Assembly (NCBI GenBank): GCA_001683735.1
Contig: LUGG01000001.1
Coordinates: 992,001 to 1,056,000, forward strand
Source of the DNA: Grifola frondosa
Lineage: Eukaryota; Basidiomycota; Agaricomycetes; Polyporales; Grifolaceae
DNA length: 64,000 nucleotides
Reading direction: 5' to 3'
The position numbers and the translations under genes were made by a program. Shown here in pieces: positions 39,390-59,402 of the stretch (position 1 is its first letter; each line of letters begins with the position of its first letter). A model generated the notes under the pieces. That model was not told the DNA's origin and ran no database searches. It saw nothing but the letters and a program-made list of their open reading frames with translations.

Positions 39390-40378
39390 ATGATAACCTC
39401 CCAACACCAAACCCTTCTTCAACGTATCCGCGACGAGCGACATGAAGTCTTGCAATATGATATTAGGACGAAGGGGCTATGCACCTGGTACTGGTAAGCA
39501 TGTCGATCAAGGAATGCTTGACACCGCTGATTTTCCCTCCTACAGGCCCCTGGAGGACGGAGGTCGTCGCGTCACGCCGTCAGCATTACGAGAGCGATCG
39601 CATGACATACAAATTTACTGGACCTTGTTGTCTCTGCCCGAACGCAACTCCAGACGAAGGACATTATACAGAAGCTGCGACACTAATAGCAATCGAAGGT
39701 CCATGTTCGGGAGAATACGTAGCAATGTGTGCAAAGGGAAGCTGTGGGTATTTGGGTAAGCATCTAACTTGCTCTCTCACAACTTGAAACCTCACCAAGC
39801 TCGACCGTTTTACAGTGTACTTGGAGAGGATCTTCGCCGCCTTCTTCGTGAAGTCCAAACAGTATGATCGCAGAGGTGCGTAGTTGTCGCATGAGTATTC
39901 ATCGAACATACGTCGAGACATCTCGACAGAACCTGGTGACTTAAGGCCCGCCACCGTATTTCACTTCTCGGAAGTCGAACTTGACAACGCATTCCGCCGT
40001 CGACAGTCTGGTAAGTTGTCAGACTCAACACTAAATGTTTAACAACTCATTCCATAAGAAGGGACTGAACATTCCGACTCACGCAAACTAAAGCGCACGT
40101 ATGCAATGTTGGGTTAGTTCACACCGTTACTAGTTTTCTGCAAACAATCTGATTCAGTGCTAGATGTAACGGCAGAGGAGATCAAAGTGACACCCGCTGA
40201 TCGACCGGTGCCTCGTCCGATTATAATCGACGACGTTCTACGCAAACTCGATAGCCTTCTGGACCCGGGTATTTCAGATGCCCAGTTCGGATTTGTGATG
40301 GCTAGATGTACGTGCGGCCTTATCATGACGCGCCGGGTGTTCCGCTACCACAGGTGCGCTACAGAACCTGCAGAGTGA
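39390..40378 (+). CDS. Cys/His-rich hypothetical protein of an agaricomycete family
   Basis: Begins MITSQHQTLLQRIRDERHEV. After an intron comes TYKFTGPCCLCPNATPDEGH, ATLIAIEGPCSGEYVAMC and GSCGYLVYLERIF, then short exons (VFHFSEVELDNAFRRRQS) and VTPADRPVPRPIIID, VLRKLDSLLDPGISDAQFGF. It ends CTCGLIMTRRVFRYHRC. Introns fit at about 39756-39814, 39875-39932, 40011-40058 and 40115-40157. The spaced CxxC and CxC..HxxC groups look like two zinc sites. One G seems missing at 39545 (GGGCCCC to GGCCCC). I recall similar proteins in mushrooms without known function; it may bind nucleic acid or protein. Confidence 0.6.
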
Positions 40379-40404
40379 TAGATCCCAAGAGAATATAGCT
40401 ATAC

Positions 40405-40485
40405 ATGATACGCGTACATAGAAGGAATGGGAGCAATCTGGAGCGAACGCTTGTCTGGAGACCGGACAGAGCGCGTACACTACTT
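40405..40485. repeat. 65-bp direct repeat, copy A, with P1 palindrome
   Basis: GCGTACATAG..GAATGGGAGCAATCT, then GAGCGAACGCTTGTCTGGAG and ACCGGACAGAGCGC. It is the same as 42716-42783 with few changes. The two copies lie on either side of the Ulp1 gene (40596-42530). The P1 palindrome GTCTGGAGACCGGAC is at 40453-40467. Confidence 0.75.
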
Positions 40486-40595
40486 ATACACTATACATAA
40501 TACATCTTGGAGATGCTTGCATATAAATGCGATTTTTTGAGTGATAAAAAACAGGCGAATTGCAAGCATGGATGAGTTGGTAACAAACAAGAGTC

Positions 40596-42530
40596 TTACG
40601 GTTTATCCAGACGCGAATTTCGATGCAAATGCTCCCATTCCTCGACAATTGCTAATATCCTATTCTTCATGTGTGTTCGCAGAGAAGGCAGCGCATCAAC
40701 TTGCCAGACTGCATTGGGATCCACCAGGAAGTCTGCATCCATCTCGGCTGTCTACCATCGAAAAATAGTTCTAGTCTCTAATGAAAACTTGTAGTTGAAG
40801 GGACGCACCCATAGAACGCCTATCATTCGCTTGGGATTGGCCATGAAGAGTTGTGCAAAGTGGCAGATGTACAACCCACAGTCATTGGAACCTGCAGGTT
40901 GCTGCGGCACCTGAAAAATACAAATAAAATACAGAACTTCATATTATATTAATATGGAACACTCACTGGTACTTGCACAACAGCAGGGCGGCACGTTGGT
41001 GAAATGTTCTTCTTTGTGTATGCCTCTACACTCAAATAATCTGATAACACTCCTCCCACCTCGACACAATTAGTCCCCGTCACCGAGCCTATAGATACAC
41101 GAGAGCAGTTCATGGAGTCAAGAATAAAGATGGTCGCGCTAAACTGTCAATTAGTATGCCGATGCAGCACAATTGAAGCAAACCCACGCTGGGGCGTAGA
41201 GGGACGAGCCGGACTGGGTGTCACCGTCACCAGCACGAAGAGTGCTACTACTCTCTGGGGGCGGGCCAAATACAGATCCAGGGTAAGCAATAACTGCCAA
41301 ATACCAATGTTTTTCGTTGCTTTATACATGCATATGAGCAATGAATGGGCAAGCTGGTGAAGAGACTTACCTATCGTAAACAGGCACGATGAGAACTGTT
41401 TTACTGAAGATGTCGACACAATTTGTATGTGATGTTACTCGATCATATCCACATTTTGTACTGCCATGAGCTAAGTGCTGAATGAATGAATGACTGGGAG
41501 TTGAACAGACTCACAGTTGCGTGAAGAAGAAAGGACTAAAGACATGAATTTGATCAGCGGTGGTGACATCTCTGGCCTTGAGCTCCTCATAACATACTCT
41601 GCAGATGCTCGTGAGTGCGTTACGGCCGCACAAATCTAATGGCACTCACCTTAAACCAAATTCAATAATGTTATCATTGAGATAACGACCCGGTTCCAAC
41701 ATAGCCAGTTCTTCAGTACCGATGCTCACAGCTCCTTTAGAATGGAAGGGATATAGAAAAAGTCTGTGGTCGGCGGGGGTAGGAGTGTCGGTTGGGACAG
41801 GAAGCGTTCGTAGAGGTAAGGATGAAGACGCAGTTATAGGGCGCCCACCAATGATCCCCGCGTGCGAGGAGCGTAGACGTGTGGAAGGGACAGATACATC
41901 AGAAATGACGCGTTTGGTGATACGTTTGGTGATACGTTTGCTGCAAATCGTTGCGCTTGAGCAAGCGCTGAGTAGAAATATAGAATCGACTTACACCACC
42001 ACGGCGATTGTAGGTTTCACATCTTCTTTGCGTTTCTTACGTGCCGGAGATGCATTCCGATGCCTAAAAGCTTGAGCATGGAGTAATTTGTGGGTACAAC
42101 AAACCGACCTACTTGATTAGTTCTTTCTTTCTTTCCGACTTGGTTAACGATGGATTTCCCCTGCACTTCTCGACCGGAGAAGACCTGAAGAGTGACATCA
42201 ATCTCAGGTTTTGAATGCAACGATTAAATGACCGCGTACTTCGGTATCACAACCTCCGTTGTTCCTTTTGCATCCCCGATCATCGTACCTGCAGCAGGAT
42301 GACTGGACACGCATGAATGTCTCAAATGCGCATTCAACGAAGGCGCATGCCGTACCTAGGCATATGTGACAGACTGCATGCGCTTCATATTGTAACATCG
42401 TGATGTGAAGATTTCAGGGAAGACAAACTAACCTTGACCCAACGATACTCTGTAGTTTCTGTAGGAGTTCGTCAGGTAGACTACTACCCATGATACGATC
42501 CAATTCGCGGTCTTGAACATCCTTAATCAT
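40596..42530 (-). CDS. Ulp1/SENP-like cysteine peptidase (C48)
   Basis: Start MIKDVQDRELDRIMGSSLPD at 42530. The N-terminal exons are poorly conserved (ARKKRKEDVKPTIAVVV near 42000). The peptidase domain is clear: DIFSKTVLIVPVYDR (about 41390), HWYLAVIAYPGS with the catalytic His (about 41285), FILDSMNCSR with the Asp (about 41120), then VPQQPAGSNDCGLYICHFAQ with Gln and the catalytic Cys (about 40880). A last exon ends with IVEEWEHLHRNSRLDKP, stop at 40596. All catalytic residues are present and the exons join without obvious damage. Ulp1 enzymes remove SUMO; many copies in mushrooms are linked to transposons. A P2-P1 palindrome array lies 170 bp upstream of the start. Confidence 0.8.
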
Positions 42531-42848
42531 TGTGACCAGGAGAGAACGATAAACGAGACAGAGAAAGCTGTCAAACGTGTGTGAGAATGCGTACAGCCAC
42601 AAAGGGTTGAACGACAATGAGAAATGGATACACGCACGATGGACGCGTACTAAATTTTGAACGTAAACGCAGAGGAACAGGAGAGCGAGGAGACACGCTT
42701 GTCTGGTGACCGGACAGTGCGCGTACATAGAATGGGAGCAATCTAGAGCGAACGCTTGTCTGGAGACCGGACAGAGCGCATACACCAGTTGCACCTGTCC
42801 ACTTGAAGTGAGCAGATGCAGACGCAATGCTGTCCACTTGGATGAGCA
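42531..42848 (-). promoter_or_regulatory. P2-P1 palindrome array upstream of the Ulp1 gene (C1)
   Basis: Read on the gene's strand, the order is: P2-like half (42831-42848), P2 GCTCACTTCAAGTGGACA (42796-42813), P1 GTCCGGTCTCCAGAC (42758-42772), P1 variant GTCCGGTCACCAGAC (42701-42715), then 170 bp to the ATG. Same order as in the other four arrays. 42716-42783 also forms copy B of the 65-bp direct repeat. Confidence 0.7.
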
Positions 42849-43565
42849 GTATTCGTGATGGTTAAAAGTTAAAGAAGCCTTCCATCCGCCGGCCTGAAAG
42901 AAGCCTATCCCTTCGGACCCCCAATCGGATAGTGCAAATTATAAACACAGCTGCAGCTTCTCGATGTCCGATTGATTTTGCGCCGGACTCTTCCGGTGGC
43001 GCGATGATAACACGTTCAAGGGGACGGCGAGCAGCAGAGTCAAGACAAGCTGTGAAACAAAGAGGCAAAAGAGATAAGCATAGCGATGACGGGTAAACGA
43101 GATAGGCATAGCGATGACGGAGAAATTAGTTACTTGAATACTGTGGAAGGCGGCTGCTGTCACATGACCTTTTGTTCCAAATGTGTACTACTACCAGTAC
43201 CGTCATCGCACTGGAACGGTACTCACAGAGAAGCCTAAAAAAATGTTCAATGAGTAATTAAGAAGAGGTGAATCGGACTCTGGCGGACCCCCCAAGTGAC
43301 TTGATGTTCTGAGACGTTAGCGGATAGGAATGCAGTAATCGGAGACGGGAAAAGTGGTTGAGAGACAAATGTCCTCACCGCCGCTCGAACATGCAGCACA
43401 CGATAAATGTCGAAATGTGTAGTCACCAACTTGTATTAACCGCGACGCTCGGCCTTGAAAGTATGCAGCCAAAGTTTTCATAAATACATGCAGTTAAATA
43501 CAGTATACAGCCGTGACATTGTCCCTACAAAATACACGAACAGGAAACCTCCGGGATTTCGGACT
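42849..43565. other. intergenic, no gene supported
   Basis: Between the 5' array of the Ulp1 gene and the 3' end of FunK1. A near-repeat ACGAGATAGGCATAGCGATGACG / GAGATAAGCATAGCGATGACG occurs at 43070-43120. No recognisable protein. Confidence 0.4.
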
Positions 43566-46163
43566 TCATGCGAGTACCACCGACAGAGCTCGCCGACCAC
43601 TAATGCCTCGTTCTCTTCCGACTGCTGTGACGTGAATCATCACTGGGACGCTTGTTACCAAGCTGGGTGGAGAGATGTGTGGAAGTTGCGGGGCTACGGG
43701 GTCGGAATAGTTCTTCAGGAATCCGCGTGGCTCCCCGAACGCGTAATGCTCCCCCGTTGCGTCCATCTCGACAATAGCGTTGATAAGAAGTCGACGAAAT
43801 GCCTCATGGACAAAGTCAACGGAGACGCCTTCACAAAGCGCATACTCGGGCCAGACAATACCAAACATCTCCGTGATGAGAGTTGCAATTGGGCCTTTCC
43901 GGAGTCTCGAATGGAGCAAATTTGGAAATTCTGCCTGATCTATCCAGGCTCCTCGTTGATCGTGACACATGCTGGAAATCTCGTGGGAGAGGAAGTCGCG
44001 GAGGTAAGGGTGTACACCATCGTATTCAAGCTCGTCCTTGCCATCTCCCCACATAATGAGGCGGTAAACCAGCAGCCAGAATACGCTTTCCATGTCGTGG
44101 TATTCCCGATGACAGAAAGGGGGAGTTTCTGGACCAGGTGGCACCAGTGTAGGTTTTGGATATTCGACATTTATATCCTTGTAAGCAGCCTTATAGAGGC
44201 TTGCGGCTTTGTCGCTGACCTTCGGGAGGTCGGGAGGAAGTGTGCCCGGGCCCTGCAGGAGACGCCCAGAAGAGACAGCGCGTGCGATGAACATGGGGGT
44301 ACCCTGAATCTAAACTGAGTACAATTACCATTAAATCAAGCAGATGGACTTACAGTGCGTGAGCTGCGATTTCCCGGTTCCTCCGGTTCAATTGATGGGT
44401 CTAGCTCCACGGAATTCGCTTTGAGGTTGTCCAGGTACTTAGCGCTGCCTTGCGTGAAAGCAGAATTGTCGAAGTCGGCCAGCAAGCAGAGACATTTGTT
44501 CGGGTCCTCGCTAAAAGGAAGGAATTAGCACACGTAACGCTCCATTATGAGCAACACTTGCGTTTTATCGAGTACGCGGGAGATATAGACGCCACCCTCA
44601 TGGCTCTGATATGTCTTACGCAATGGTGGTTTGTGAACGTTCCAGAGAACATTGCCCATCGAGATGTCGCGGTGAAGAACGCCGCGCGCACACAGAAGAC
44701 GATGAGCTAACAATTGGATCGTATTAGCTTGCAGAAGAGACAGGAGAAGATAAGAATACTCACTCTCAACGAGGTCATACAGCACTTTCAGTAGCTCATA
44801 AATTGTCGGGCAGCTTTCGAGGGTCTCGCCGATACCCTCGACGACGATGCGAAGACGCTTCCATTGTGATTCGCACGTTGTGATAAACCGTTCCTCGCGA
44901 TCCTTCACGACTGCATACTCCACCAAAATGGGAACACCCGGCAAGACACTACGGCCATAGTCGTGCGCGATGTTCAGCATGCGATGCTCGAAATAGAACC
45001 TGGTCCTCGATAGAAAAATATCCTTGCAGGCCAAATTGTGCTTGTAGTCGACGAAAACGTTGACCCGCCTGCTGCGAGTCGGACTTCCCACAAAAACCAG
45101 CCGCATGTCATCATAGACTTTTTCACCAACAGTAAGCTTCCATAGCGACAGTCCAGCAAACTGCCGTACTTCACGGGGGATACCTGATGGCAATCGAGGA
45201 CGTCGTGCACTATTGGCGTCGCCGGAACCTTGGGGGAGTTCTGACATGAACCCGATAGTACTATCATAATAAGTGTGCGGGCGTGCGGGACGGCGAACGG
45301 TCCACATCAATTGCATGAGAAGATGACCTCCATTAATCAATTCCATTGGCGTCGTAATCCGAGTGCCCTCGGCGTCGCTCCAATACAAACGAAAGCTCGA
45401 TGGGGAGAGGCAGAGCCCGAAAACGCCGACACAGTCCGGCCTGCCGATAAGATGGTAGGTCGTATACATTGCCGCCTGCTCCCTCCCCCTCCTTAACGAC
45501 CATTGGTTTCACCTCGATGGTCATGCAGAGACGGGCCCATGGCACCCCGACGAATTGCTTGCTTTTCTTGCGTTGTTCTTCCGGTCCGTCCTTCTGCTCG
45601 TCCTGCTGTGCGATATTCTTCGTCCGTCTGTAATATTCTATCTCCTCCGCCGAAGCATTCACTGCGACAAGGTCGGGGCGGACTTTAGTTCCGAGTGCAT
45701 GTTCGGACGGGGCGCTGTCCGCGTGGATGACGAAGAGGAGAGGTGCATGATTCAATCCTCGGACTTTCATATGTTCTGAGGGCGCATTAGCATTGAAATC
45801 AATGTAATTTATGCACGGTCACCTTCGACATGTGCAGCACAGGCGTTCAAGAGGTCGCAGATAGGTTGGTACAGTGTTTCCTCCTTGGTAGATTTCGGGA
45901 GCTCGAGCAAACGTGTGAGTAGTGATTGCACGGACTCCGGAATTGGTCTTGATATCGTACTCCGGCGAAAGAAGATTCATAAAGTCAGAAACATCTATGT
46001 CTGGCAAACGCGCAGAGGCATTCTTGACATGACCAGGTATCCTAATGTTACCCGGGTTGGTAGTTGCCTTTACGGGGCTTGATGGTTCCAAGTAAGGGAG
46101 CACCCGTCTGACAGGAGACCCAGGACGCGGCTCTGTAGAGAATTTGGGGTCCGGGTTCGACAT
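43566..46163 (-). CDS. FunK1-type protein kinase
   Basis: First exon MSNPDPKFSTEPRPGSPVRR. A frame change then leads to PESVQSLLTRLLELPKST and LYQPICDLLNACAAHVEG. Next come KVRPDLVAV and WARLCMTIEVKP (about 45500-45690), YWSDAEGTRITTPM and LLMQLMWTVRRP. The catalytic loop is VLHRDISMGNVLW (about 44670), and the metal motif ADFDNSAF lies near 44465. The C-lobe continues GTPMFIARAVSSGRLLQGPG, PPFCHREYHDMESVFWLLVY, stop at 43566. HRDIS and DFD in place of DFG are characteristic of FunK1, a basidiomycete-expanded kinase family of unknown substrates. Frame changes near 45930 and 45450 need resequencing. Divergent from the gene at 47001, with mirror-image palindrome arrays between them. Confidence 0.85.
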
Positions 46164-46275
46164 GTTAACCGTCTGATGTTCAGACGGTGTCACGGTGTGT
46201 GGTGGAGGTGGCGTTGTTCAAAGGATCGGTACTGTGAGCCTCAGCGGATAGGTGGAATAGAGGATAACCTGAGTT

Positions 46276-46377
46276 GTCTGGAGACCGGACAACTCGGACA
46301 GAGGAAGTTTGAATAGAAGGAATCTACCAACTTGAAGTTGGCAGATCCCTGTTGAGCACCGTCCACTTGAAGTGAGC
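46276..46377 (-). promoter_or_regulatory. P2-P1 palindrome array upstream of FunK1 (C2)
   Basis: On the gene's strand: P2 GCTCACTTCAAGTGGAC (46361-46377), P2 variant CTGCCAACTTCAAGTTGG (46326-46343), P1 GTCCGGTCTCCAGAC (46276-46290), then 112 bp to ATG 46163. Same order and orientation as C1. Confidence 0.7.
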
Positions 46378-46490
46378 GGTGACTGGGCACTATCTGAATC
46401 AAGACCGACGTTCAGGATTGAGCCGCGTTAGAAAATCAAGCTTCTTCCCAGATTGTTACCGGCGCACAGCCGGTGGCACGGAAGGTAGTA

Positions 46491-46573
46491 TTTGTCCAGG
46501 CCATATATAGGGTGAGAATATGCACATATCTGGACATATGCTTACCCTTTAAGGCAATATCTGGCCTGGACAA
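46491..46573. repeat. imperfect hairpin between the divergent arrays
   Basis: TTTGTCCAGGCCATATATAG then GGTGAG pairs with CTTACCCT and ATATCTGGCCTGGACAAA some 30 bp later. It lies midway between arrays C2 and C3. Confidence 0.6.
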
Positions 46574-46807
46574 ATTCCGATTCCCCGGATCATCAATATG
46601 CAAGAAACTCGCTGTGCCACATGACATTGGTACTTTTGCCCATATATGGTATACTCCCATATTCACCTTTTTCCGGGCTGCCCGCCTCCGCCGCAAGTGT
46701 TGCCGAATTTCTTTCACACGTGACCCAGTTACGGTGGCGTGACACATATGAAGCGCTCGATTTTCAGTCGAACACTCTTGCTTTCTTACTACCACCAATT
46801 CAGTACT

Positions 46808-46957
46808 GCTCACTTCAAGTGGACAGTACTGAACAGGATCTGCTAACTTCAAGTTGGCAGATTCCGAAGCTTTCTGAACTCTGTCGTCCGGTCTCCAGAC
46901 GTCTGAGAATACCCTTGTTTTGTTCCACGCTACAGCACTGCCGTCCGGTCTCCAGAC
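46808..46957 (+). promoter_or_regulatory. P2-P1 palindrome array upstream of the 47001 gene (C3)
   Basis: P2 GCTCACTTCAAGTGGACA (46808-46825), P2 variant TGCTAACTTCAAGTTGGCAG (46841-46860), P1 GTCCGGTCTCCAGAC twice (46886-46900 and 46943-46957), then 43 bp to ATG 47001. Confidence 0.7.
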
Positions 46958-47000
46958 GAGCGTGCTGTTATCCCCTACCTGCCTACCTGCTGCCTGCCCT

Positions 47001-49609
47001 ATGGCGGAAGACGTGACTGGACCCAAGCCCCTAGGCGGCCTGGTGGAATTCATGCGTGCATGTCGAAGACCAATGAAGGACGAGGAAATCACACCTCGGG
47101 ACTGCTTGCGTCTCAGCCGCTTCCCCGGCACAAACGACAAACTATGGATTTCCACGCCAAACATGACGTGGATCCCTGAACCTCCGATACATCTCGACAA
47201 GGAATTCCGGTATCACGATGACGGTATGCTCCATGCCTTCGAGTATGCCAAATGGCCGCAAGCGTACTGCGATTCCGAGCCCCATATCATCGCCGCGCCG
47301 CTATGCCCAACCCTGGCTCAGTTCGGAATCAGCGATCGCTTCCGTATGGGACCAGCGTTTCCCGTGATGGATGACGAGCACGTATTGCCGGATTTCGAGG
47401 ACGTCAATATTGCATGGATGGACTTCAATCCCATGCATCATTTCCGTATTGCCGAGGAGCTGCCCAATGAGGCTGTGGGATCTCTGTCCCCATCACTTCT
47501 TCAGCGTTTTCGTGCGACAATGATAGAAGCCAAGACGATGGCAGGGAGAGGGTTTGCAGACGACTTCAGAAAGTTGGGAGATGATGGTATGTGTACGGTG
47601 TTCATGCTCCTCTGTAGATGTGCTAATTCCTTTTCTTAGTTCATGACATGCGGACGGCCAAGAAGGTGGCCGGCATGTTCAGGTTCCAAAAACAACGGTG
47701 CGACGACTTGAAAATGGTATTCGACCATTTGAAGGAAGTGCCGATGTCAAGTTTCGACACCTTGTTGTGGTTCCGCGAATTTCAGCGCGTCTTGCTGGAC
47801 TTGCGCGCTTTCATCATATATCGCGAAGTGATCGTGCCGCGTCTGAACGACGTCAATTTCAAGCAGCCACAGCCTGTACTGCCACTGAGAGGTGTAATTA
47901 CCTCTCATCTCCATCTAGTGTCCGAGATGTATCGTGTCGGCGTACCGGTCTGGTATGTTCGCGACAGGGTTTCAATCACGGAGCGCACCCTCATTGTCCG
48001 AGTGGAGACATTGCTGTTAGCAGGCGTTTGTTTTTCATCTGCTATCACGATGAAACACGGGCAGCATTTGGCAAACGCTCCGCTCTGGGTTGATGCTCCC
48101 ATGGCGCAAGTGATTCGTGGATCTCTTCAAGAGAGGCTGCGAAGGTTCTCCCTGACGAGCCGTCCCATACTCCGTCCTCTCGAAACATACTCTGCGGGGC
48201 GCGTTGGCGATTTCGAAAAGCAGCAACATCGTTCCTCACCGCAGATCGCTGGTCCTGACCATCCTCGCCAGGAGCTCGTTGATTTGACAGCAGATGATGT
48301 TCTGCCAGCATCTGACAATGACCATGTCATCATGGTGACTACGCAAGCCACCGAGCAGTATGGTACGGATATCAGCAGCTGATAATCATCCGTTCGCGCA
48401 TTAATTTTGTTTTATAGGCAGCAGCGTTACAGATGTCGGCGGAGTTGCAGTCGGTGCAGACATTGAAGACAATGTCAGTGCGGAAAAGCAGACAAAAGAT
48501 GCAGCCATGCGCGGTCCCTCGATGAGTGTTGGGATGCCGTCTGCCTACATGGCACGTAAATCTTTGCAAACGCGGACCGCCCATAAGAAGGGCAAATCGA
48601 CCAATCATAGGATCGTACCACCTTCATGGGTCCCTCCCTATGCACCTGGGTGGGCGAACGTCCTGAAGTCATGCGAAGGTCTCACCGATGACGACCACGT
48701 GGGCCTTGTTTATGCGCTGCCTCCCATCCATATTTTCTTCAGTGCCGAAAGCCCCCTCACAGAGCAGCGTGCCCATAATTGGCTTCGCGTCAGAATCTTC
48801 TGCTTCCAGCAGATTCTCAGCCCTCCGGCCCACAGGATGGTGCTCATGACAACGCAGCAGTGGAGAATCGCGCTCGAGGGCAAATATTTTGCTATAGAAT
48901 ACGAGCATAGTCATGTAGAGCCGGAGTCGGCCAAGGAACATATTATCCGTCTGCCCCACCGCCACCACAGGAGAAAAGGCCGCGACAAGAAGGGAAGATG
49001 GAGGCGGGACAGATCATGAAGAACGCCAATGCAAAGAGGGTGGCTGATCGCGTCGACATCAATGTCCGGTTCGGTATTCATGGGGGCTTTCCGCCGTATA
49101 GCGCAGACTGTGCTCCTGCATGGGGCGACGTCAACATCACGCGCCAAATGCTCTCTGCGGATCGCACCGTTTTCGTCGGCATTGTGTGGGAGCTGGCTTT
49201 ATTCAACTTCCGTCTGGAGTTGATCTTCCTCGATCGCCAACTCGTCCCATATTTCTATAATCACTCGGACCAGAGGCTTGCCCTTCGACGAGAGCGTGTT
49301 ATCTACGAGATCTGGAACAGCGGAGGAGTCCGGCCCATGTGGACAGACGACCTCAAGTGCGATCGTCTCACTTCGGTGTTATGGGATGAGCGGCGCGAAG
49401 CGGTCAAGCAGATGGCCATAGTGATGAAGGATTGGCCAGATGGTCAACATCTGCTGTGGACCGATCAGTGTTCCTCGGATTTCGACGCATACTCGAAGTT
49501 CGAAACCGAGGTCTTCACGTTCTACGTAGAAGCCTTTCATGGTCGTTTCGGTCGCATTCCGCATGTGCCCCTCGAGCAGCCGTTGTCCTTGGGCCAGTTT
49601 CGCAAGTGA
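47001..49609 (+). CDS. uncharacterised agaricomycete family protein, paralog A
   Basis: Start MAEDVTGPKPLGGLVEFMRA. Exon 1 runs to about 47585 (MIEAKTMAGRGFADDFRKLG). After an intron (47586-47639) comes VHDMRTAKKVAGMFRFQKQR, FREFQRVLLDLRAFIIYREV, SEMYRVGVPVWYVRDRVSI. An intron near 48361-48417 leads to VTDVGGVAVGADIEDNVSAE, PPSWVPPYAPGWANVLKSC, RIFCFQQILSPPAHRMVLM. A frame change near 48985 precedes RTVFVGIVWELALFNFRLEL and LWTDQCSSDFDAYSKFE, ending at 49609. I recall this architecture (GVPVW(Y/L)(V/I)R box, then WEL..NFR.EL) from many mushroom proteins of unknown function. No catalytic motif is evident. About 830 residues. Confidence 0.7.
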
Positions 49610-49867
49610 TTCGCGGACCGTCTTATGATTGATGTCTTTCTCGCGCTCTCCTCGGTAGCTTTTCCCTCCAAAGAACTTGTCGCACGGAGGGTTTTTGACG
49701 CACCCGTAGGAGAATTTATCTTGTAGCATGTACGTCTGCAATGAATCCTTCCAGTTGCGTGCCATCGAGTTAAGTAGACGCTCAATTATTTGGTAATATT
49801 TGTATCTCTGCGTCTAATGCTGACTTTTTTTCAACCTTTCACTCGCACGTTTACGGTATACGTATAC
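49610..49867. other. intergenic, no gene supported
   Basis: A 52-codon minus-strand stretch (49610-49765, MARNWKDSLQTYMLQDKFSY) and a 36-codon plus-strand stretch (RLMIDVFLALSSVAFPSKEL) overlap here; neither is convincing. Confidence 0.35.
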
Positions 49868-50050
49868 TGCTCATTTTCAAGTGGACAGGTACAGACCTCT
49901 GCTCACTTCAAGTGGACAGAAGTTACTCGTCGCTACACGCACCGTCCGGCTTCCAGACGAGTGTGCTCTGAGTCTTCGATCACGCGTTTTACCCGCACCA
50001 GCGGAGGATATCTTTGTTTTCTCATCTCACATGCCGTCTGGTTTCCAGGC
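49868..50050 (+). promoter_or_regulatory. P2-P1 palindrome array upstream of the Plavaka gene (C4)
   Basis: P2-like TGCTCATTTTCAAGTGGACA (49868-49887), P2 GCTCACTTCAAGTGGACA (49901-49918), P1 variant GTCCGGCTTCCAGAC (49944-49958), P1 variant GTCTGGTTTCCAGGC (50036-50050), then 181 bp to ATG 50232. Another worn copy, TCTGTGGTTTCTGGAAGAGC, follows at about 50116. Confidence 0.65.
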
Positions 50051-50231
50051 GCATTCTAGTGTCGCGTTTCGCTCCTACTAGTTCACATTAGAGGACGACA
50101 TCATTTCCTCACGCGCTCTGTGGTTTCTGGAAGAGCGTGTTCCGAGTCTCCTCACCCTCATCAAGAGTGATATACGGTCGGTTGAACTTTGTTGTTATTG
50201 AATCCATCTACTCACATATTGTGGAACTTAG

Positions 50232-53200
50232 ATGGAGCTGTCTACCACCTACACGGAGTCTTGCATATGTGGGAGAAGCTTTATGACCCCAGGGTCGTTC
50301 ACCAAGCATAGTCGAGTTTGCCCTAAGCGCAAGAAAAGATCTGCGGGTGCCCTCGCTAGAGTGCAGGAGCTTTGGGCTTCGAAACGACAACGACAGGATG
50401 ACTCCATGCCCCCTGAAGCTCAAGGCGTGAAGACCAAGACGCACACCTTTGGCCCTCTCTCGTCTCCACTTGACGCTGCCAGAGTCTTCGACTCAGCATC
50501 AACTACCCTATATGATTTGGACGCTCGGTGGCAGAGCGTAGGACCCGCAGAGAAAATCGTATGCTTCCCAAGCGGTATCGAGACATAATCCCGGCACCTG
50601 CTGCAGCACTACCTCCATCGTCGTCGCTACCTCCATCGTCATCGCTACCTCCGTCACTTCCATTACCTCAAGATTCAACACAAAATACTGCTCCATCAGT
50701 TGGGACTCGCCTTCTACATGTCTTCAAGTCTCCTCGGAACGTGTTCGGGTTATTTCGACGATATCAATCAAATAACTTCCCCCAGCATGATCCTGAAGAG
50801 AATGTGGACCGGGAGGAGCTAATGACTGCATCCGACGAGGTTTTAAGCTCGTCTGAGATCGATGAACAACCATACTACCCATACCCAAATCAGTCATCGT
50901 TTACTTTACATAACTGGTTTTGGAATGATGGGGTGGTGAAGTCTCAATCGTCCTTTCGAAAGTTGACAAAAATCATCAGTCACCCCGAGTTCAAACCGGA
51001 AGACATCGCAAGGACTAACTGGCAGCGCATCGATGCTCGTTTGGCAGACGTTGAGCAAGATGCCAACATTTCCCAACGACACGAAGGGAGACAGTATAGT
51101 GACAAGTGGACAGAGACCCCAATCACAATATCTGTTCCTTTTCATGCCAAGATGCACCGCCCAGGGCCTCAGGATTTCGGTGCAGGAATACTTCATCACC
51201 GAAAGCTAGTTTCGGTGATCCGCGAAAAGGTCTCGAACCCTGAAAGCCATCCCCACTTTCATTACGAGCCTTATGAACTACATTGGCAGCCGGAGGGAGC
51301 TTTGGAAGATGTTAGAGTATTCGGAGAAATGTATACATCACAGGCGTTCGTCAATGCGCACCGCGATCTTCAGCTAGCTCCTGGAGAACCTGGATGTGAC
51401 CTTCCGAGGGTTGTCGTTGCACTCATGTTTGCGTCTGATGCTACCCATCTAACGGATTTCGGCTCCGCTAAACTCTGGCCTCTGTACCTTTCGTTTGGAA
51501 ACGAATCGAAGTATAGACGAGGCAACCCGTCTTGTAATCACTTTGAACATGTCGCCTACTTTGAATCTGTGAGGAATCCTGAAAATCCTGCAGTTCATAA
51601 CTGACTTAATGCGTTAGCTACCTGATACATTCAAGGACTTCGTGATGGAAAGTGTCGGGGGAAAGGGTCCGAACACCGCTTTCACCACACATTGTCACCG
51701 AGAAATGCTTCATGCACAGTGGACCATCCTTCTTGATGATGACTTTCTGGAGGCGTATGAGCACGGTATTATCATCGAATGTTGTGACGGCGTGCGACGT
51801 CGGTTTTACCCGCGTATTTTCACATATTCCGCAGATTATCCTGAAAAGTATGTAAAGCCCATTGTTCCTTTCTTGAGGATTCGCTGATAAGTTCTTCAGG
51901 ATCACCATAGCAAGCATCAGAAATCTCGGTCGTTGTCCATGTCCGCGTGCCTAATTCCACTCAATCGCGTGCACAACATGGGCATGACTCGAGATATGGC
52001 CCAGCGTGTAACACTTGCTCGCACCAACGACGCTCGACGTCGGGATCGTGTCGCGACAGCTCGTAAATTCATTTACGAGATGAATTATGGGTCAACAGTG
52101 CGGCAGTTGAGAAGTTGCTGCAGGAAGAGTCGCTTGTACCCACTGCAGTGAGTGTGATTCGTGTTACATATTCCCGTTGAGCTTGAACATATCGTATTCT
52201 TAGAACGCTTTTTCGGAAAGGTTGTCGTCACCAAATTTCAACTTGTTTGGGATGCTCGTTGTAGACCTTATGCACGAGTTCGAGTTAGGCGTCTGGAAGG
52301 CGCTCTTCATTCATCTTCTTCGGATACTTGATTGTCTGGATGAATCCCGTAAACACGAACTGGACCGCCGGCAAGTTGACTTATTCCGACATATTGAACG
52401 ATGAAGCCCATGCTTTGATCATAGATTTCGTCAAATCCCTGCATTTGGCAAAGATACCATCAGGAAAATTCATTCCAATAGATCGGAGTTGAAGAAAATG
52501 GCTGCGCGGGATTATGAAGACTTGCTGCAGGTGAATTTTTAATTTGGGCTACTGGGTGAATCGCTTCAATGTGGATTCTAGTGTGCAATACCCGTCTTTG
52601 AAGGTCTCTTCCCCGAACCACATAACACTCGAGTGAAAGATTTGTTATATATCATGGCCCACTGGCACGGTTTTGCAAAGTTGCGCATGCATACGGACAC
52701 AACATTGGATATCCTATCTGAGGATACCGCTGTCTTAGGCCAGAAACTTCGTGAATTCAAGGAGAAGACCTGCGCCGCGTTTCAAACACGGGAGTTAGCT
52801 CGCGAGGGTGAAGCTCGAAAGAGGCGTCAGCAGAAAAATGTTGCAGGCGCTGGTCCTAATTCCGCAGCACCGGGCGATGCGCGTCGACCTAAAGCTTTCA
52901 ATCTCAATACCTACAAACTTCACTCCTTGGGTGACTATGTGTCAACCATCCGACTCTTTGGGACTACAGATTCTTACTCGACTCAACTGGTGGGCTCTTT
53001 CTACTTTGTGGAATGCGTTCGCTAATGTACTTTGCCTAGCCTGAAACCGAACACCGAAAGTCGAAATCTCGCTTCCTTCGTACGAACGGTAGATTGATTC
53101 GGAAACAGTTGACCAAGATCGAAACACGGCAGCGCAATATACGTAAAATGCGTGAAAAACTTAGTCCGCAGGAAGCTCTCCATCCTCCGGACATGGAGGA

Positions 53201-54382
53201 CGTCCCAAGCGATCCACGGATGCAGTACAACATGGGTAAATCGGAGAATTCTCCGGTGAATGTCCCATCCTTCCTTCAGAAACATGCTGGCGATCCAGCA
53301 ATCAAGGTAGGCCATTTCTGGATTGTTCGTTGAGTGTGCTGACGGCGTTCCGTAGGACTTCTTGCCAAAGCTGAAAGATCACCTTCTTCCTCGCATACAG
53401 GAGATCATCTCGCAAGAAGCCACCTTCGGCTCTAACTCGACTAGCGTTCCAGGACCTGTGGTCGGTTACGAACATCCACGGGATTCTGTCTTCTTGAAGA
53501 ATGATCGCATCTATCATCACAGTCTCATCCGATTCAACTACACTACCTATGACGTCAGACCGCACCACAGTGTTGTCAATGCCGGTACCGAGCAATGCAA
53601 TATCATGCTTCTCGCCGACAGTTCTGATCCCGCCGGCTCCGGTCGTTTCTTGTATGCCCGTGTGTTGGGGACATACCATGCAAAAGTCGTTTATATGGGA
53701 TCTGGAATGCGCGACTACGAACCTCGTCGTATGGACTTTTTATGGGTGCGATGGTACGAAGTCTTGGATGGAAGCAGCTCTCAACTTCCTTCCCTTCGAT
53801 TTCCTTCCATGTGCGATGCGTATTCATTTGGATTCGTCAATCCGAGCGATGTGCTACGTAGCTGCCACGTTATTCCTGATTTCGCGGGGGCAAGCGCCAT
53901 GATGATGGTATTGGTACTTCCTGCTGCGCCAAGGATGCCCAGGACTGGTGTCGCTACTACGTGGGCTGGTATGTGTTCGGATATTATTTACTAGAAATGA
54001 TTTGACTTGTTCAATCCTTGCAGTTTTTCTGATCGCGACCTTTATGCGCCATCACTGGGATTAGGTGTGGGTCACATCTATGCTCACGGAGCTGGAATCA
54101 AGGTAAACCGTGGTGCCGTGGTGGAAAATGCAATTGATGCACGGTTGGCTATTCTATCCGCGGAGAGAACGGAAGGTGTGCAATGTTCCTTTCACTGCCT
54201 TCGTAGTTCTAACTTAGTGTAGTTGTAGATGATATATCGGACAACCATGAAGAAACTTACAACCCAGATGATGATCCGGAACTAAGTATGGAAGACGAGA
54301 GAGAGAGGGCTGGGAAGACGTCGAATCAGACGATGAGGCTGAGTATGAGGACGACGTCTCCTCTGGGGAACATGATGAATGA
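50232..54382 (+). CDS. Plavaka-type (CACTA/EnSpm-related) transposase
   Basis: N-terminal C2H2 finger CICGRSFMTPGSFTKHSRVC (about 50268), then a Pro/Ser stretch. The transposase blocks follow: HNWFWNDGVVKSQSSFRKL, GILHHRKLVSVIREKV, LMFASDATHLTDFGSAKLWP, LSFGNESKYRRGNPSCN, DDDFLEAYEHGIIIECCDGV, RRFYPRIFTYSADYPEK, FGMLVVDLMHEFELGVWKAL, YIMAHWHGFAKLRMHTDTTL, FNLNTYKLHSLGDYVSTIRL, NDRIYHHSLIRFNYTTYDVR, MDFLWVRWYEV, VNPSDVLRSCHVIP, FSDRDLYAPSLGLGVGHIYA and an acidic tail, stop 54380. This is the full Plavaka protein order. Frame changes at about 50570, 51600-51640, 52400 and 53890 (a G-run, where one added G restores RHDDGIGTSCC). No clear TIRs were found. Confidence 0.85.
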
Positions 54383-55154
54383 GAGGCTGGCTCCGACCAT
54401 TCGCGCATGTCTTCTCATCATCACGTTCACCCCGTCCTTGTTCCATACTTATTCGTGTCCTCTTACATCCATGTTCTAAGCATCTGTCGCATTCACGTAC
54501 GCAAACTCTTCACTTTACTACTGATTCGAGTTGCATATGAATCAAATGGGCATATCTTGCACCATATACTGCACTACCCCTCCTCAAGTACTCGAAGTTG
54601 GTGTGACTGTTTAAGAACCCAAGGCGAAGAGGGATGAAGAAGAGAGCGGACCGTATATGACAGACTCTGTCTGCTCGGAGCGGCATAACGAACTAATTTG
54701 GACAGCAGCGCGTTCACTTGTGAGTAGTTGGCGCTGCTCCGCCCGCCCAATCCGATTCCGTCTCTGTCCACAGTTCAGACATCACGCAGCCACCCGTTCG
54801 TTGGATTTAATTTATGTTTAATTTAAGTCATTATCATAGCCCAGCCTCAAACAACCATACTCGAAGTTAATGACTGTACTCCATGGGCCGTTACATACTT
54901 ACCCCAGGACGTCGGTAGGAAGGAGTGGTGAGAGGTAGTTGTCCTGTCTTTGTTCGCAGAATCTCTGGATTGGCATATGTATGTTCAATTACTTTCCTCC
55001 AACCTCGACATCTGCGGTGATAGCCGTTAATTAAGGCAATCTGTCCACATAAGTCGATGGGTCACGTTCACCCATGTGACCTCGGAGGTGTTCGACTCCT
55101 TGAATTCACTCTTGCCTGATGAACTAGTACTAGCATTACGGTGCTCCAGTCGCT
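54383..55154. other. intergenic with a short Ulp1-like start fragment
   Basis: Mostly empty. The frame at 55076 reads MTSEVFDSLNSLLPDELVLA and then runs into the palindrome array. It resembles the start of the Ulp1 gene at 42530 (SSLPDELLQKL), so it may be a 5' remnant of such a gene. Confidence 0.4.
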
Positions 55155-55351
55155 GCTCACTTCAAGTGGACAGCCATCATTGCTATTGCTCACTACAAGT
55201 GGACAATTGCATCTTGCGTCGTCCGGTTTCCAGACGCGCATTTACTCGATTTCAGACAGACCCCTCGAATTGCCCGCGTCGTCCGGTCTCCAGACTGCAT
55301 TTACTCGATTTCAGACCTTTCGAATTGTCTGCGTCGTCCGGTTTTCCAGAC
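55155..55351 (+). promoter_or_regulatory. P2-P1 palindrome array upstream of paralog B (C5)
   Basis: P2 GCTCACTTCAAGTGGACA (55155-55172), P2 variant GCTCACTACAAGTGGACA (55188-55205), then three P1 forms, GTCCGGTTTCCAGAC (55221-55235), GTCCGGTCTCCAGAC (55281-55295) and GTCCGGTTTTCCAGAC (55336-55351). The P1 copies are spaced about 55-60 bp and separated by related text (ATTTACTCGATTTCAGAC). A half copy follows at about 55431. The ATG at 55552 is 200 bp on. Confidence 0.7.
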
Positions 55352-55551
55352 AGGCGCGTCAATTACTCGACTTTGGACCTTCATCCGGCCTTCAGACACC
55401 TGCTCGATTTACCTTCGAATTCCTCGCGTTGTCCGGTGCTTGCTTGTGCACGATATCCGACCCTCACCCTTTTTCCATCGTCACCTACATTTCAGTGTAA
55501 GTGATAGCTTCCGTCTGTACCACTACTATATGCTTACCCGCTGGTATAGCT

Positions 55552-58437
55552 ATGATGCATACTTGTCATACTCTCCTGTACGATCCAAAAACCTGCCTAG
55601 CGGGATCTTCCCGAGGCCCATCGACACCCTGGGACCAATTCCACGACCACAAGGTCATCCGCACCTATGCAATACTCGACAATAATCGAGTCGCAATATC
55701 TCCCAATGCTGACTACATTCCGGCGGAGCCACCTTCTGGGAACCCACCAAAAAGGCCATATGCGGATGGTCGCCGATACACATTCGAATTCGCGTTTCAG
55801 CCGCAGCAATGGTGTGCCGAGCTGGAGTACATTTCTTGTAGTTATCAGTTGTCAGAGGCCAGTGGTATTATAGACCCAGCCTTCACATTGCTGGAGGATG
55901 GGCAAACGTTCAAGACGACAAACTGGCACAGCCGTCAAGGCCGAGTTCTTCAGACGTTCTACGAGCCGTTATTTGAGCTGTTCCAGTCGGAATGGACTGC
56001 TGCGACAGCCATTCAGAGCAATGCGTTGCCCCATGTCGTGCGTTCGTGGTCGGAGATAAACACTGCCGAGGAACGCCGCTGCGTCAAAGACGAACGTCTT
56101 ACGCTGCAAAAGCAGCGCACGAAAGTCGCTGAGATTCAGCGTCACATCCTAAAGCTGCGAGCATTTACTCAATGGTGCACGCTCATGAAAGCTTTCCGCG
56201 ACGGGATTATAATACGTCCAGTCCCTACCTTGTCTGTCGTTGGCACTTGGACAGCCGCGAACGATGAAGTCACCAGGAAGCGACTTGTGTGGCTAGGTAT
56301 ACCGTGTTGGTATATCGCCTCTTTACCGAAGTCGCCGATTCCAACGTCGCCAAGTGAAATTCGATCAGTTGACTCTCGTCTCACTGGTTGGGAATGGGAT
56401 GACGATATGGACCATCCTAAGCCTGAGACGGCGAAGGCGAAGAAGAGGTGTATGGAATCGGACGATGAGGGCTGGAGTGAGGAAGAAATGACGGCCATCC
56501 CCCCTGCGACATACACGCTTCCTGGTGTCCTTCCGGAACGGAAATATCTTAAGCTGAAGAAAAAGGGTGCTACGATCCTTCCCTCTGAGGTTCCGGTGAA
56601 GTTCAGACCTGGTTTGACTCCCAGACCTTCTCCTGGTTGGCAACCGCCACAAGGCGGATATCGCTCTCATTCTCCCAAACCTCGCGCTCCTCAGCCCCAT
56701 TCACGGGGCAACAACTATCAACGTCGCTCTCGTTCTCCCGAGCCTCGCGCTCCTCAGCCCCATTCACGGGGCAACAACTATCAACGTCGCTCTCGCTCTC
56801 CCGTTCGCCGCTGGGGTTATTCATCCGCTAGAACACAATGCGAATCTCCAGATCGGTACGACCCTATGGGTGCTGATGTCGGGTGTCGGGCAGGACATGA
56901 TGGCGGCCAGTCTTCCTGCAGTCTGCGAGATGCCAGTGAGTACATCCCATACCAAGGTCAGTGTGCCCGCTAACGAAGAAGTAGGCGACATAGGATCAAT
57001 ACATGCCACTGCCGAGCCCGTCAGCCTTGAAGGGCTCGAGATCGCTCTCGCCGATATCGGACACCAGCTTCATCCTCCCCCGCAGGAGAAACAAGCTCAT
57101 ATGGACGTTGATGGCAGAGATGCACCGATGACGGACAAGGTACCCCCGCCGTCAATCCCGTCAGCCTTGAAGAGCTCGAGGTCGCTCCCGCCGAGCTTCA
57201 TCCTCCCCCGCAGGAGAAACAAGCTCATATGGACGTTGATGGCAGAGATGCACTGATGACGGACAAGGTACCCCCCGCCGTCAATCCCGTCAGCCTTGAA
57301 GAGCTCGAGGTCGCTCCTGCCGATACCGGACACCAGCTGGATCCTCCTCTGCAGGAGCAACAAGCTCATATGAACGTTGATGGCAGAGATGCACTGATGA
57401 CGGACAAGGTACCCCCGCCGTCAATCCCGTCAGTCTTGAAGAGCTCGAGGTCGCTCCCGCCGATACCGGACACCAGCTGGATCCTCCTCTGCAGGAGCAA
57501 CAGGCTCATACGGACGTTGATGGCAGAGATGCATTAATGACGGATAAGGTACCCCCGCCGTCAATCCTGTCGGCCTTGAAGGGCTCGAGACCGCCGGTGC
57601 TGGGAACCAGCTTAACGTCGCAGTCCCTTCTCCTTTCATACAAGCGCGATCTGCGACGGAAATAGACATGTTGATGCCCAATGCTGAAGACGAGGCCCGA
57701 GTGTGGACAACAAATTACGGTGTCGCTGTTCGCACCACAGTCCCCATCAACAGCCAGGCAGAGCTCGACATCTTTCTACGCGACACTTTCCCTTTCGATT
57801 CATCTTTACCATATGCCCTTGCGCGATGGGAAGAAATGATGGCCATGCCTGCATTCCCGCCACGGGGAGAATGGTTTCTACCTCCCGCTAGCATGTTCAC
57901 ACCCGAGGATGCTAATCATTATCAGTACGTCTCATGTGGAAGCGGGTCAGAGACAGATACATAACTTCGGTTGTGGAACAGCACCCATCATCCTGGAATG
58001 GATTACAGGCCAGGTGTGAAAACCATAGCTCGAGAGCTACGACACCGTTGAAAGGCCTTCTCCGTACTTTCGGTAAAGCCCAGATTCCTGCCGAACAGCT
58101 CTCAAAAATCGGTTATTCGCCCATATCCTATGAGGATCTGGCGAGATATCGCTGGGAGCTAGATACATGTCACTTCCGTTCCGAGTTTGAACGTACAGCG
58201 ATTACTCTCGATGAATCATATGTCTTGGCGCCATCACCTGCTACTTGGATTCCGCTGCGCGCCGCCATACGCAGGGCCTGGGGATACGGCATCTGCTACT
58301 TTCCATACTCTCAGGAGGCGCGATTTCTTGACAGCCCGGATGAACTTGTGCGACTTCGCCACTGGCGAGCCCTTGGACGATCATGTTGCGGTGGCGTATT
58401 TCCAACCACAGTAAAGCATGTATACGTCTCGCTCTGA
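55552..58437 (+). CDS. uncharacterised agaricomycete family protein, paralog B
   Basis: Long first exon, probably from ATG 55552. It contains RYTFEFAFQPQQWCAELEYI, LQTFYEPLFELFQSEWTAA and MKAFRDGIIIRPVPTLSVVG, then KRLVWLGIPCWYIASLPKSP, equivalent to the VGVPVWYVRD box of paralog A. Ser/Arg/Pro repeats foll (PEPRAPQPHSRGNNYQRRSR twice, about 56670-56800). A 47-residue tandem repeat follows (57017-57600). The C-terminal part has TPEDANHYQ and SYEDLARYRWELDTCHFRSE, matching the WEL..NFR.EL block of paralog A, and stops at 58435. The frame is broken inside the tandem repeats and near 57940. The extra RS-like and repeat insert is absent from paralog A. Function unknown; the RS/Pro-rich part suggests nuclear or RNA contact, which is only a guess. 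Confidence 0.6.
57017..57600 (+). repeat. 141-bp (47-codon) tandem repeat in paralog B
   Basis: Units start CCCGTCAGCCTTGA at 57017, 57157, 57286, 57426 and 57566. Spacings are 140, 129, 140 and 140. The encoded unit reads PVSLEELEVAPADTGHQLDP then PLQEQQAHMNVDGRDALMTD and KVPP. The 129-bp unit lacks 12 bp and has a run of six C; the 140-bp units have five C there and lose frame. With six C all units would be in frame. Confidence 0.8.
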
Positions 58438-59097
58438 GGGGGTCTCCAAGAGAAGTGGAAGACGGTGTACGGGCGGTGTACACCCAGCAATGTCGGAACG
58501 TGCACGCCAGTCAGCCGACGAATTTCACATCTCGTAGTGCTTCGTGGTGAGTCCAGGAACTACGTTTTACAAATAATGTTTTAAAATTTTTTGGTAAACT
58601 TAGGCTATGAATCCGTCGGACTACGCTACACCTGCCTAAGCACACCTTGTGCATCGTGTAGGCTTGTATCATTACCTCCAATGTGTACTATCTGCTGTAT
58701 ATATTGCAAGTCGTATTTATGTTGGATCTGCTAATGAACAGCATTTTGCTGCGATTTCACTTGGACGGTACATTGTGGAACTCGTGCCTCATCCTGACTA
58801 CAGAAAGCTCAACGAGAAGAAATTCGAGTCTCATGTCAATGTCCAGTAACAGGTCAACACGAGTTCCAGATCGACGCACCAAAGCCCCTCGTAGTTCGAG
58901 CATCTTACACACAGTAATCGTCACGGAAACTTGATTGAACTGCAGACACATATCCCTTCTCGCGTTCCTTGTTCATGCACCGCATCGACATCTAGCAATC
59001 TCTGTCTCTCTCTCTCACATACATACACACACACATCCGTCTTCTCAAAGGTAAGTACCAATATCCGATCGATTTCGAATTTCCTGACCCCCTTGTA
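58438..59097. other. gene-poor stretch after paralog B
   Basis: A GTGAGT donor at about 58549 and AACTTAG acceptor near 58603 lead to a short exon MNPSDYATPA ending at 58638. It might be the true 3' end of paralog B in another frame. A 66-codon frame at 58649-58849 is unrecognised. A CT- and CA-rich simple repeat lies at 59002-59036. Confidence 0.35.
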
Positions 59098-59402
59098 GAA
59101 TGTGCCGCGCCGAAAACGTCGTCTATCGATGCGGGAAGTCCGCCGTTGTCCGACGACATTCTGCGCTCATGCGACAAGATTTCCTCGCCGCCTGCGGAGT
59201 GGCAATTTCACCTGGGTGCGACGCCGTTGCCAGCATACTGGCGAGATAAACCGGTGGCCCACGTTTGGTGCAGACGCTGCGCAAGGAAGCCGGTGAAGCG
59301 TCGCAAAGCGAGCTTCAACGGAAGGCCGACATGCGATAAGGTGCGTTCATTCTTCTGATTATTTCAATTTTTCTAACCACAACTATGTTGCCAGGCGTGG
59401 TG
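59098..59402 (+). CDS. short Cys-rich hypothetical ORF
   Basis: Frame ECAAPKTSSIDAGSPPLSDD, ILRSCDKISSPPAEWQFHLG, AYWRDKPVAHVWCRRCARKP, GRPTCDK, with a GTGCGT donor at 59341 and an acceptor TGCCAG at 59395 giving a last AW and stop. The upstream intron 59051-59097 is plausible. The CRRC and CDK Cys could bind zinc. It may be the terminal exon of a longer gene or a remnant. No family recognised. Confidence 0.3.

What the first reader, a model, noticed from the sequence alone, without database searches (positions are those of the whole stretch)
40405..55552. Five unrelated genes share one 5' architecture: P2 palindromes, then P1 palindromes, then the start codon
P2 is GCTCACTTCAAGTGGACA (core CACTTCAAGTG, a palindrome with a one-base centre). 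P1 is GTCCGGTCTCCAGAC (imperfect palindrome). Arrays lie upstream of the Ulp1 gene (42701-42848, minus), FunK1 (46276-46377, minus), paralog A (46808-46957, plus), the Plavaka transposase (49868-50050, plus) and paralog B (55155-55351, plus). In all five, P2 is distal, P1 is proximal, and both have the same orientation relative to the gene. The distance from the last P1 to the ATG is 43-200 bp. No full array was noticed elsewhere in the window. It could be a regulon with one or two dimeric transcription factors serving transposon-linked genes, or a mobile promoter cassette spread with these genes. I know of no description of it.
Basis: seen in the sequence. Interest (0 to 1): 0.88.

Follow-up and report, generated by a model that had tools for sequence, protein, structure and literature searches.

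The report
Shared promoter cassette in fungal transposon
A large jumping gene cluster in a fungus carries the same two-part stretch of repeated DNA words in front of five of its genes, and some of its distant cousins in the same genome do likewise with different words, which suggests that such elements may switch on their own genes with a private code.

Summary
In detail: each of the five genes has two P2 palindromes, then P1, then the start codon, in gene orientation. But the five genes are the inside of one ~25 kb PlavakaB-type DNA transposon (window 31525-61111; ends CATCAGA..TCTGATG; 2-bp target duplications in 5 of 5 copies with both ends read). Genome-wide, 39 of 39 exact P1 and 30 of 30 exact P2 hits lie in its copies or remnants; other hits are near background. 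So there is no host regulon. Between the five promoters the motifs are 79-100% alike, while 28 of 30 spacer comparisons are near the shuffled level. Two diverged families in this genome show a similar plan with other letters: doublets of ATCGCTCYCAGCGGTG before B, Ulp1 and A, and of CGCTCTTTAGCGGT before B, Ulp1, A and a unit holding a UGPase fragment, partly through recent promoter duplication. Six A-like genes of more distant kin gave no signal. Best reading: a family-specific promoter cassette that co-regulates the element's genes. The binding protein is unknown; there are no expression data.

The parts
31525..61111 (.). PlavakaB-type DNA transposon, window copy (29,587 bp including a 4,550 bp nested insertion); termini CATCAGA..TCTGATG; 2-bp target duplication AC at 31523-31524 and 61112-61113
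   Evidence: terminal pattern matches PlavakaB as described in PMC12730594 (passages)
36985..38387 (-). DUF6698 gene (approximate), no P1/P2 upstream
   Evidence: PF20414 on two exon pieces
39440..40380 (+). Cys-rich small gene 'g2' (approximate), divergent from DUF6698; four ~177-bp tandem repeats (38560-39250) lie between them in place of P1/P2
40600..42530 (-). Ulp1-type protease gene (approximate)
   Evidence: PF02902 on one exon piece, E 2e-4, just above the curated cut-off
42701..42848 (-). Ulp1 promoter array: P2 42831-42848 (degenerate) and 42796-42814, P1 42758-42772 and 42701-42715
40453..40467 (-). orphan P1, in a ~70 bp copy of the Ulp1 promoter
43560..46163 (-). FunK1-type kinase gene (approximate); close matches only in copies of this family, other genome matches at most 33% identical
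   Evidence: PF17667, E 6e-6
46276..46378 (-). FunK1 promoter array: P2 46360-46378 and 46325-46343, P1 46276-46290
46807..46957 (+). gene A promoter array: P2 46807-46825 and 46841-46859, P1 46886-46900 and 46943-46957
47001..49609 (+). gene A, unknown function (approximate)
   Evidence: no Pfam match on four exon pieces; relatives in families II and III
49868..50050 (+). transposase promoter array: P2 49868-49887 (degenerate) and 49900-49918, P1 49944-49958 and 50036-50050 (degenerate)
50232..53994 (+). Plavaka transposase gene (approximate); N-terminal C2HC-like finger, below the Pfam cut-off
   Evidence: PF18759 and weak PF13913
55154..55397 (+). gene B promoter array: P2 55154-55172 and 55187-55205; P1 55221-55235, 55281-55295, 55336-55351 (one base longer), 55383-55397 (3 mismatches)
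55552..58437 (+). gene B, unknown function (approximate)
   Evidence: no Pfam match on two exon pieces; relatives in families II and III

Best explanation
The P2-P2-P1(-P1) arrays are the shared promoter or upstream activating module of a multi-gene PlavakaB transposon. Copies of one cassette stand before five of its genes, so that one or two dimeric DNA-binding proteins, binding the 19-bp P2 pair and the 15-bp P1 sites, switch the set together. Shown here: the arrays, their order and orientation, their confinement to the element, divergence of most spacers against retention of motifs between the five promoters, and similar family-specific doublets in two related families. Inferred: that the sites bind protein, that the effect is transcriptional, that motif copies spread by intra-element promoter copying, and that the regulator is most likely encoded by the element because the site changes with the family.
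For: Exact P1 39 of 39 and exact P2 30 of 30 genome hits lie in element copies or remnants; of one-mismatch hits 3 of 17 (P1) and 6 of 27 (P2) lie outside, against 2 and 5 hits of the reversed control patterns. Across the 10 promoter pairs motif identity is 79-100%, while 28 of 30 spacer comparisons lie within 0.10 of the mean for shuffled spacers. Two P2 at 31-35 bp spacing in 5 of 5. Family II (C40, C2, C3 loci): P1' doublet 36-37 bp apart before B, Ulp1 and A; 15 of 15 exact genome hits in its three copies. Family III (C12): doublet 45-46 bp apart before B, Ulp1, A and a minus unit, 8 sites in the two loci scanned; 4 of 4 exact genome hits of the longer pattern there. Promoters of different genes share 160-604 bp at 90-99% in families II and III. 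Repeated-dyad test: 7 of 18 promoters stand out (0-1 of 200 shuffles reach the value).
Against: No expression, start-site or binding data. 11 of 18 promoters gave nothing in the repeated-dyad test, including 2 of 5 of family I (FunK1, transposase), II_Tnp, III_A, III_B and all 6 family IV promoters; promoter bounds and settings were chosen by me after seeing the motifs. In III_Ulp1 and II_Ulp1 the dyads that stood out are the distal palindromes, not the P1-like doublet; the family III doublet is a poor palindrome and passes no dyad test. The family II transposase promoter has no P1' within 3 mismatches. The decayed copy on C6 has four P2 hits but no P1 within 1 mismatch. Between near-identical copies the motifs are not better kept than the rest: 2 of 1,775 against 30 of 9,280, but insertions were all booked outside motifs and five of them, one change seen in five comparisons, fall inside the Ulp1 P2, which makes 7 against 25. 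DUF6698/g2 has another repeat type. In families II and III the shared motifs sit in recent promoter duplications, so recurrence there is not independent evidence of selection. No element protein with a clear transcription-factor domain was found.
Confidence: 0.55

Rival explanations
1. P1 and P2 are sites for host transcription factors that the element has recruited, and families differ because they recruited different host factors.
For: A host factor needs no element-encoded DNA-binding protein, and none was clearly recognised.
Against: P1/P2 occur near background in the rest of the genome, unexpected for a used host site of this length; a much shorter host core within them is not excluded.
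Confidence: 0.25
2. The arrays are internal binding sites for the transposase or an accessory protein with a role in transposition, silencing or autorepression, as with TnpA of plant CACTA elements.
For: Plavaka transposases resemble EnSpm/CACTA ones (PMC12730594, passages); TnpA binds repeated family-variable motifs (PMC2613891, passages).
Against: P1/P2 are not subterminal: the nearest P1 is about 8.9 kb from the left end (4.4 kb without the nested insertion), and the right end is 5.7 kb away; each end has its own repeats. The arrays sit before five of the genes in gene orientation.
Confidence: 0.15
3. The arrays are passive leftovers of promoter duplication inside the element, with no constraint on the motifs.
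For: Promoter stretches are clearly copied between genes: 160-604 bp at 90-99% in families II and III; ~70 bp at 91% for the orphan P1 and 67 bp at 88% between A and FunK1. Between near-identical copies the motifs are not better kept than other promoter positions.
Against: In family I most spacers are at the shuffled level while P2, P2 and P1 are kept at 79-100% in all ten promoter pairs, with similar spacing.
Confidence: 0.15
4. A free mobile promoter cassette (MITE-like) inserted repeatedly before these genes.
For: The same blocks recur before different genes.
Against: No exact copies outside the element and its remnants; no common cassette ends in family I, only the motifs align.
Confidence: 0.03

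Closest known systems
PlavakaB DNA transposons (PMC12730594, passages seen)
   Same: PF18759 transposase, CATCA..TGATG ends, 2-bp target duplication.
   Different: The passages seen describe no shared promoter arrays; 'Ulp1' does not occur in that main text and 'promoter' occurs once.
CACTA (En/Spm, Tgmt*) subterminal repeats bound by TnpA-like proteins (PMC2613891, passages seen)
   Same: Short repeated motifs, some palindromic, that change from one element family to the next together with presumed binding proteins.
   Different: Those repeats sit at the element ends and serve excision; P1/P2 stand before five internal genes.
Type-specific promoter motifs of endogenous mavirus-like elements (PMC8547959, passages seen)
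   Same: A mobile element whose genes share an upstream motif, with different motifs in different element types.
   Different: Those are virophages thought to answer to giant-virus factors; there the mavirus-type motif is short (TCTA), not a palindrome pair in fixed order.
MITEs in promoters of Fusarium effector genes (PMC3599309, search listing only)
   Same: Repeated mobile DNA before a set of genes.
   Different: As I recall, those are separate insertions; P1/P2 are inside one element.

Membership tests
PlavakaB DNA transposon | Plavaka transposase domain | tested here: met
   PF18759, E 7e-14 and 5e-6 on two open stretches
PlavakaB DNA transposon | termini 5'-CATCA..TGATG-3' | tested here: met
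   CATCAGA..TCTGATG in 5 of 5 copies with both ends held; criterion from PMC12730594
PlavakaB DNA transposon | 2- or 3-bp target duplication | tested here: met
   AC, CA, CC, CC, CC in 5 of 5; right end of copy E and both ends of the C36 copy not read
PlavakaB DNA transposon | transposase phylogeny within PlavakaB | not tested
   no tree was built
CACTA TnpA-type binding array | arrays located subterminally at both ends | tested here: not met
   no P1/P2 site in the terminal regions at the mismatch limits used
CACTA TnpA-type binding array | bound by an element-encoded protein | not testable with these tools
   needs binding assay
Regulon (shared site at several promoters) | same sites, order and orientation before several genes | tested here: met
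   5 of 5 promoters
Regulon (shared site at several promoters) | common trans-acting factor and co-expression | not testable with these tools
   no expression or binding data
Free mobile promoter cassette | copies outside the element, own ends and target duplication | tested here: not met
   no exact P1 or P2 outside element copies or remnants; own ends not seen in family I

The most novel reading that the evidence does not exclude
Each PlavakaB family runs a private transcription circuit: an element-encoded dimeric regulator and its cognate doublet, copied before core genes and also before captured cargo (FunK1 in family I; a unit with a UGPase fragment in family III). The doublet is homogenised within a family by copying promoters between genes and replaced wholesale between families, so that families sharing one nucleus do not cross-activate.
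Probability: 0.28. Interest if true: 0.8.

Novelty: new variant of a known kind. Interest (0 to 1): 0.6.

Why it matters
Large multi-gene DNA transposons must express several proteins together while remaining foreign to the host. A promoter cassette copied before element genes and captured cargo, and renewed family by family, would be a simple way to do so and would suggest how cargo genes come under element control. It gives a testable handle (short synthetic sites) on the regulation of Plavaka elements; KDZ and Plavaka together are about half of the DNA elements in the one mushroom genome I looked up (Marasmius oreades; PMC8290104, passages).

Tried and rejected
Host regulon: rejected, exact genome-wide hits lie in the element or its remnants. 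Free cassette: rejected. Sites as ordinary transposase-end repeats: disfavoured by position. Family IV: upstream DNA of six A-like loci at 38-40% identity (C25, C22, C5, C15, C2 twice; at least four more of similar identity were not fetched) was read; no repeated dyads over shuffles (0 of 6). By eye C25 and C22 carry a CGCT-CCT-AGCG stretch resembling P1', but next to splice-donor-like letters; not counted. A family III distal palindrome GTCTCATYGATGAGAC occurs exactly at only two places, both between B and Ulp1, so it is a weak P2 analogue; family II AAGCGCTT palindromes likewise. Protein homologues of B in the large database: none. Structure of an exon piece of A from a two-row alignment: mean pLDDT 28, useless. 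Literature: 'Plavaka' in 11 papers (passages seen in three of them); 'DUF6698' in none; the P1/P2 strings in 16 papers, of which the 10 listed showed no apparent tie to a transposon by title and start of abstract, none opened; the rows listed by searches (each a part of the hits or all of a few) named nothing on shared promoters within fungal transposons. That is a statement about these searches in open-access text only.

Limits: one genome, unnamed fungus, no transcripts; gene ends are approximate; the copy on C36 and the remnants on C6 and C13 are known from pattern and protein hits only; the list was cut after its first places, and protein searches of the genome score only the best candidates.

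Full report
WHAT IS THERE. P2 core and P1 are far above chance in the window, and P2 followed by P1 on the same strand occurs 13 times, only in the five named promoters, against none in 60 simulated windows. Every one of the five promoters has two P2 sites 31-35 bp apart and a P1 whose start lies 34-53 bp after the start of the second P2. P1 is a 6-3-6 imperfect palindrome (GTCCGG-TCT-CCAGAC), in the same polarity at all five promoters. P2 extends to about 19 bp (TGCTCACTTCAAGTGGACA), with a variant TGCTAACTTCAAGTTGGCA at A and a similar one at FunK1.

WHAT IT BELONGS TO. The window lies in a 39.06 Mb, 64-contig assembly, of a fungus by its protein families and introns (my inference). The 39 exact P1 hits fall in seven clusters. 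DNA of six of them (the window and five others) was compared: they are copies of one element, 99.1-99.8% identical over the main alignments of 4-20 kb, with shorter pieces and end regions at about 96-98%. The element runs from 31525 to 61111, with ends CATCAGA..TCTGATG and 2-bp target duplications AC, CA, CC, CC and CC in the five copies with both ends held. These are the marks given for PlavakaB (PMC12730594, passages), and it encodes a Plavaka transposase (PF18759), an Ulp1-type protease, a fungal kinase and DUF6698, plus two unknown proteins, A and B. A 4.55 kb fold-back element (32283-36832) sits inside the window copy and not in the other five compared.

GENOME-WIDE SPECIFICITY. Exact P1: 39 of 39 in the element. 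One-mismatch P1: 14 of 17 in the element or in a remnant on C13 (reversed-pattern control: 2 hits). Exact P2 15-mer: 30 of 30 in the element or in remnants on C6 and C13; one mismatch: 21 of 27 (control: 5 hits). The C6 remnant keeps P2 but has no P1 within one mismatch. So there is no host regulon of these sites.

CONSTRAINT. Between the five promoters of the element the motifs are 79-100% identical in all ten pairs, while 28 of 30 spacer comparisons lie within 0.10 of what shuffling gives; the exceptions are FunK1 against A and Ulp1 against B, both in the first spacer. Between the near-identical copies there is no sign of constraint: 2 of 1,775 motif positions and 30 of 9,280 other promoter positions differ as the script booked them, but it booked every insertion outside the motifs, and one change seen in five comparisons (a base missing from the Ulp1 P2 of the window copy) lies inside one, which makes 7 against 25. 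Many differences are single-base gaps that could be assembly errors.

THE SAME PLAN WITH OTHER LETTERS. Family II (C40:46.6-66k, C2:1125-1138k, C3:876-890k) encodes B, Ulp1, g2, DUF6698, A and transposase in another gene order; exon matches to the window element run from about 30 to 87% identity (on C40; for places on the others). Its B, Ulp1 and A promoters share 189-322 bp at 90-94% in gene orientation, each with a doublet ATCGCTCCCAGCGGTG / ATCGCTCTCAGCGGTG 36-37 bp apart (the second B site in the C2 copy is broken by one base). All 15 exact genome hits of the pattern are there; of 5 one-mismatch hits 2 are there and 3 elsewhere; the control gave none. P1' is again a 6-3-6 imperfect palindrome. 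The family II transposase promoter has no P1' within 3 mismatches. Family III (C12:35-43k) has CGCTCTTTAGCGGT-like doublets 45-46 bp apart before B, Ulp1, A and a minus-strand unit, 8 sites in 4 promoters (two loci scanned, up to 2 mismatches); it is a poorer palindrome. The 4 exact genome hits of the longer pattern are all there, 2 one-mismatch hits lie elsewhere, and the control gave 4. Its A and B promoters share 604 bp at 98.7%, and the minus unit's promoter is a 160 bp, 91% copy of the Ulp1 promoter. Downstream of that last doublet, beyond a MITE-like insertion seen by eye, lies a fragment of UTP-glucose-1-phosphate uridylyltransferase (PF01704). Thus the slot divergent from A holds FunK1 in family I and a captured metabolic gene fragment in family III, both behind the family's own motif. 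The UGPase unit also shows a TATA-like stretch nearer its start (by eye), so control by the doublet is a guess.

TEST WITHOUT A CHOSEN MOTIF. Looking for repeated dyads within each single promoter, 7 of 18 exceed shuffles (Ulp1, A, B in family I; B, Ulp1, A in family II; Ulp1 in family III; 0-1 of 200). In I_A it is the P2 pair that stands out, and in II_Ulp1 and III_Ulp1 a distal palindrome pair, not the P1-like doublet. Eleven do not exceed: FunK1 and transposase of family I, whose copies are too few or too diverged for the test, the family II transposase, family III A and B, and all six family IV genes. I set the promoter bounds by hand after seeing the motifs and ran one setting. The architecture is therefore supported in family I, less strongly in II and III, and not in IV. 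In families II and III recent duplication explains part of the recurrence.

MECHANISM. Most likely the cassette is an upstream regulatory module recognised by one or two dimeric proteins that co-regulate the element's genes. Since the sites are private to a family and change together before several genes, an element-encoded regulator is the simplest match, but I could not identify one: the exon pieces of A and B have no Pfam match, B has no homologue in the protein database search, and the one structure model failed. A host factor remains possible.

COMPARISON. The element is a PlavakaB transposon by three tested features; no tree was built. The arrays work perhaps like TnpA sites of CACTA elements, or like the type-specific promoter motifs of mavirus-like elements, but are not members of either: they are not subterminal, and this is not a virophage. 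I found no description of promoter sharing in Plavaka elements in the searches named under Tried and rejected.

Noticed in passing
window 32283-36832: Nested 4.55 kb fold-back element with long inverted arms built of ~20-bp degenerate repeats; 7-bp target duplication CGAGAAG; absent from the other five copies compared.
   Followed up: partly
window 38560-39250: Four ~177-bp tandem repeats between the divergent genes DUF6698 and g2, in place of P1/P2; the family II intergenic region showed only one exact 10-bp direct repeat.
   Followed up: partly
L055:787-1188 (minus), C12 contig: Fragment of a UGPase gene (PF01704) captured in a related element, in the slot that FunK1 holds in the window element.
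   Followed up: partly
L041:1635-7095: A second large fold-back insertion (arms of about 2.2 kb) with 21-bp repeats beside gene B of the family II copy on C40.
   Followed up: no
window 44887-44892 and 52788-52791: Sites where copy A (11.6 kb, in FunK1) and copy D (2.0 kb, in the transposase) carry further insertions, with short overlaps that look like target duplications.
   Followed up: no
L042:5841-5857 and 7819-7835: A perfect 17-bp inverted repeat between the A coding region and the transposase promoter of family II.
   Followed up: no
window 57006-57603: Tandem repeats of about 128-141 bp inside gene B whose number appears to differ between copies.
   Followed up: no
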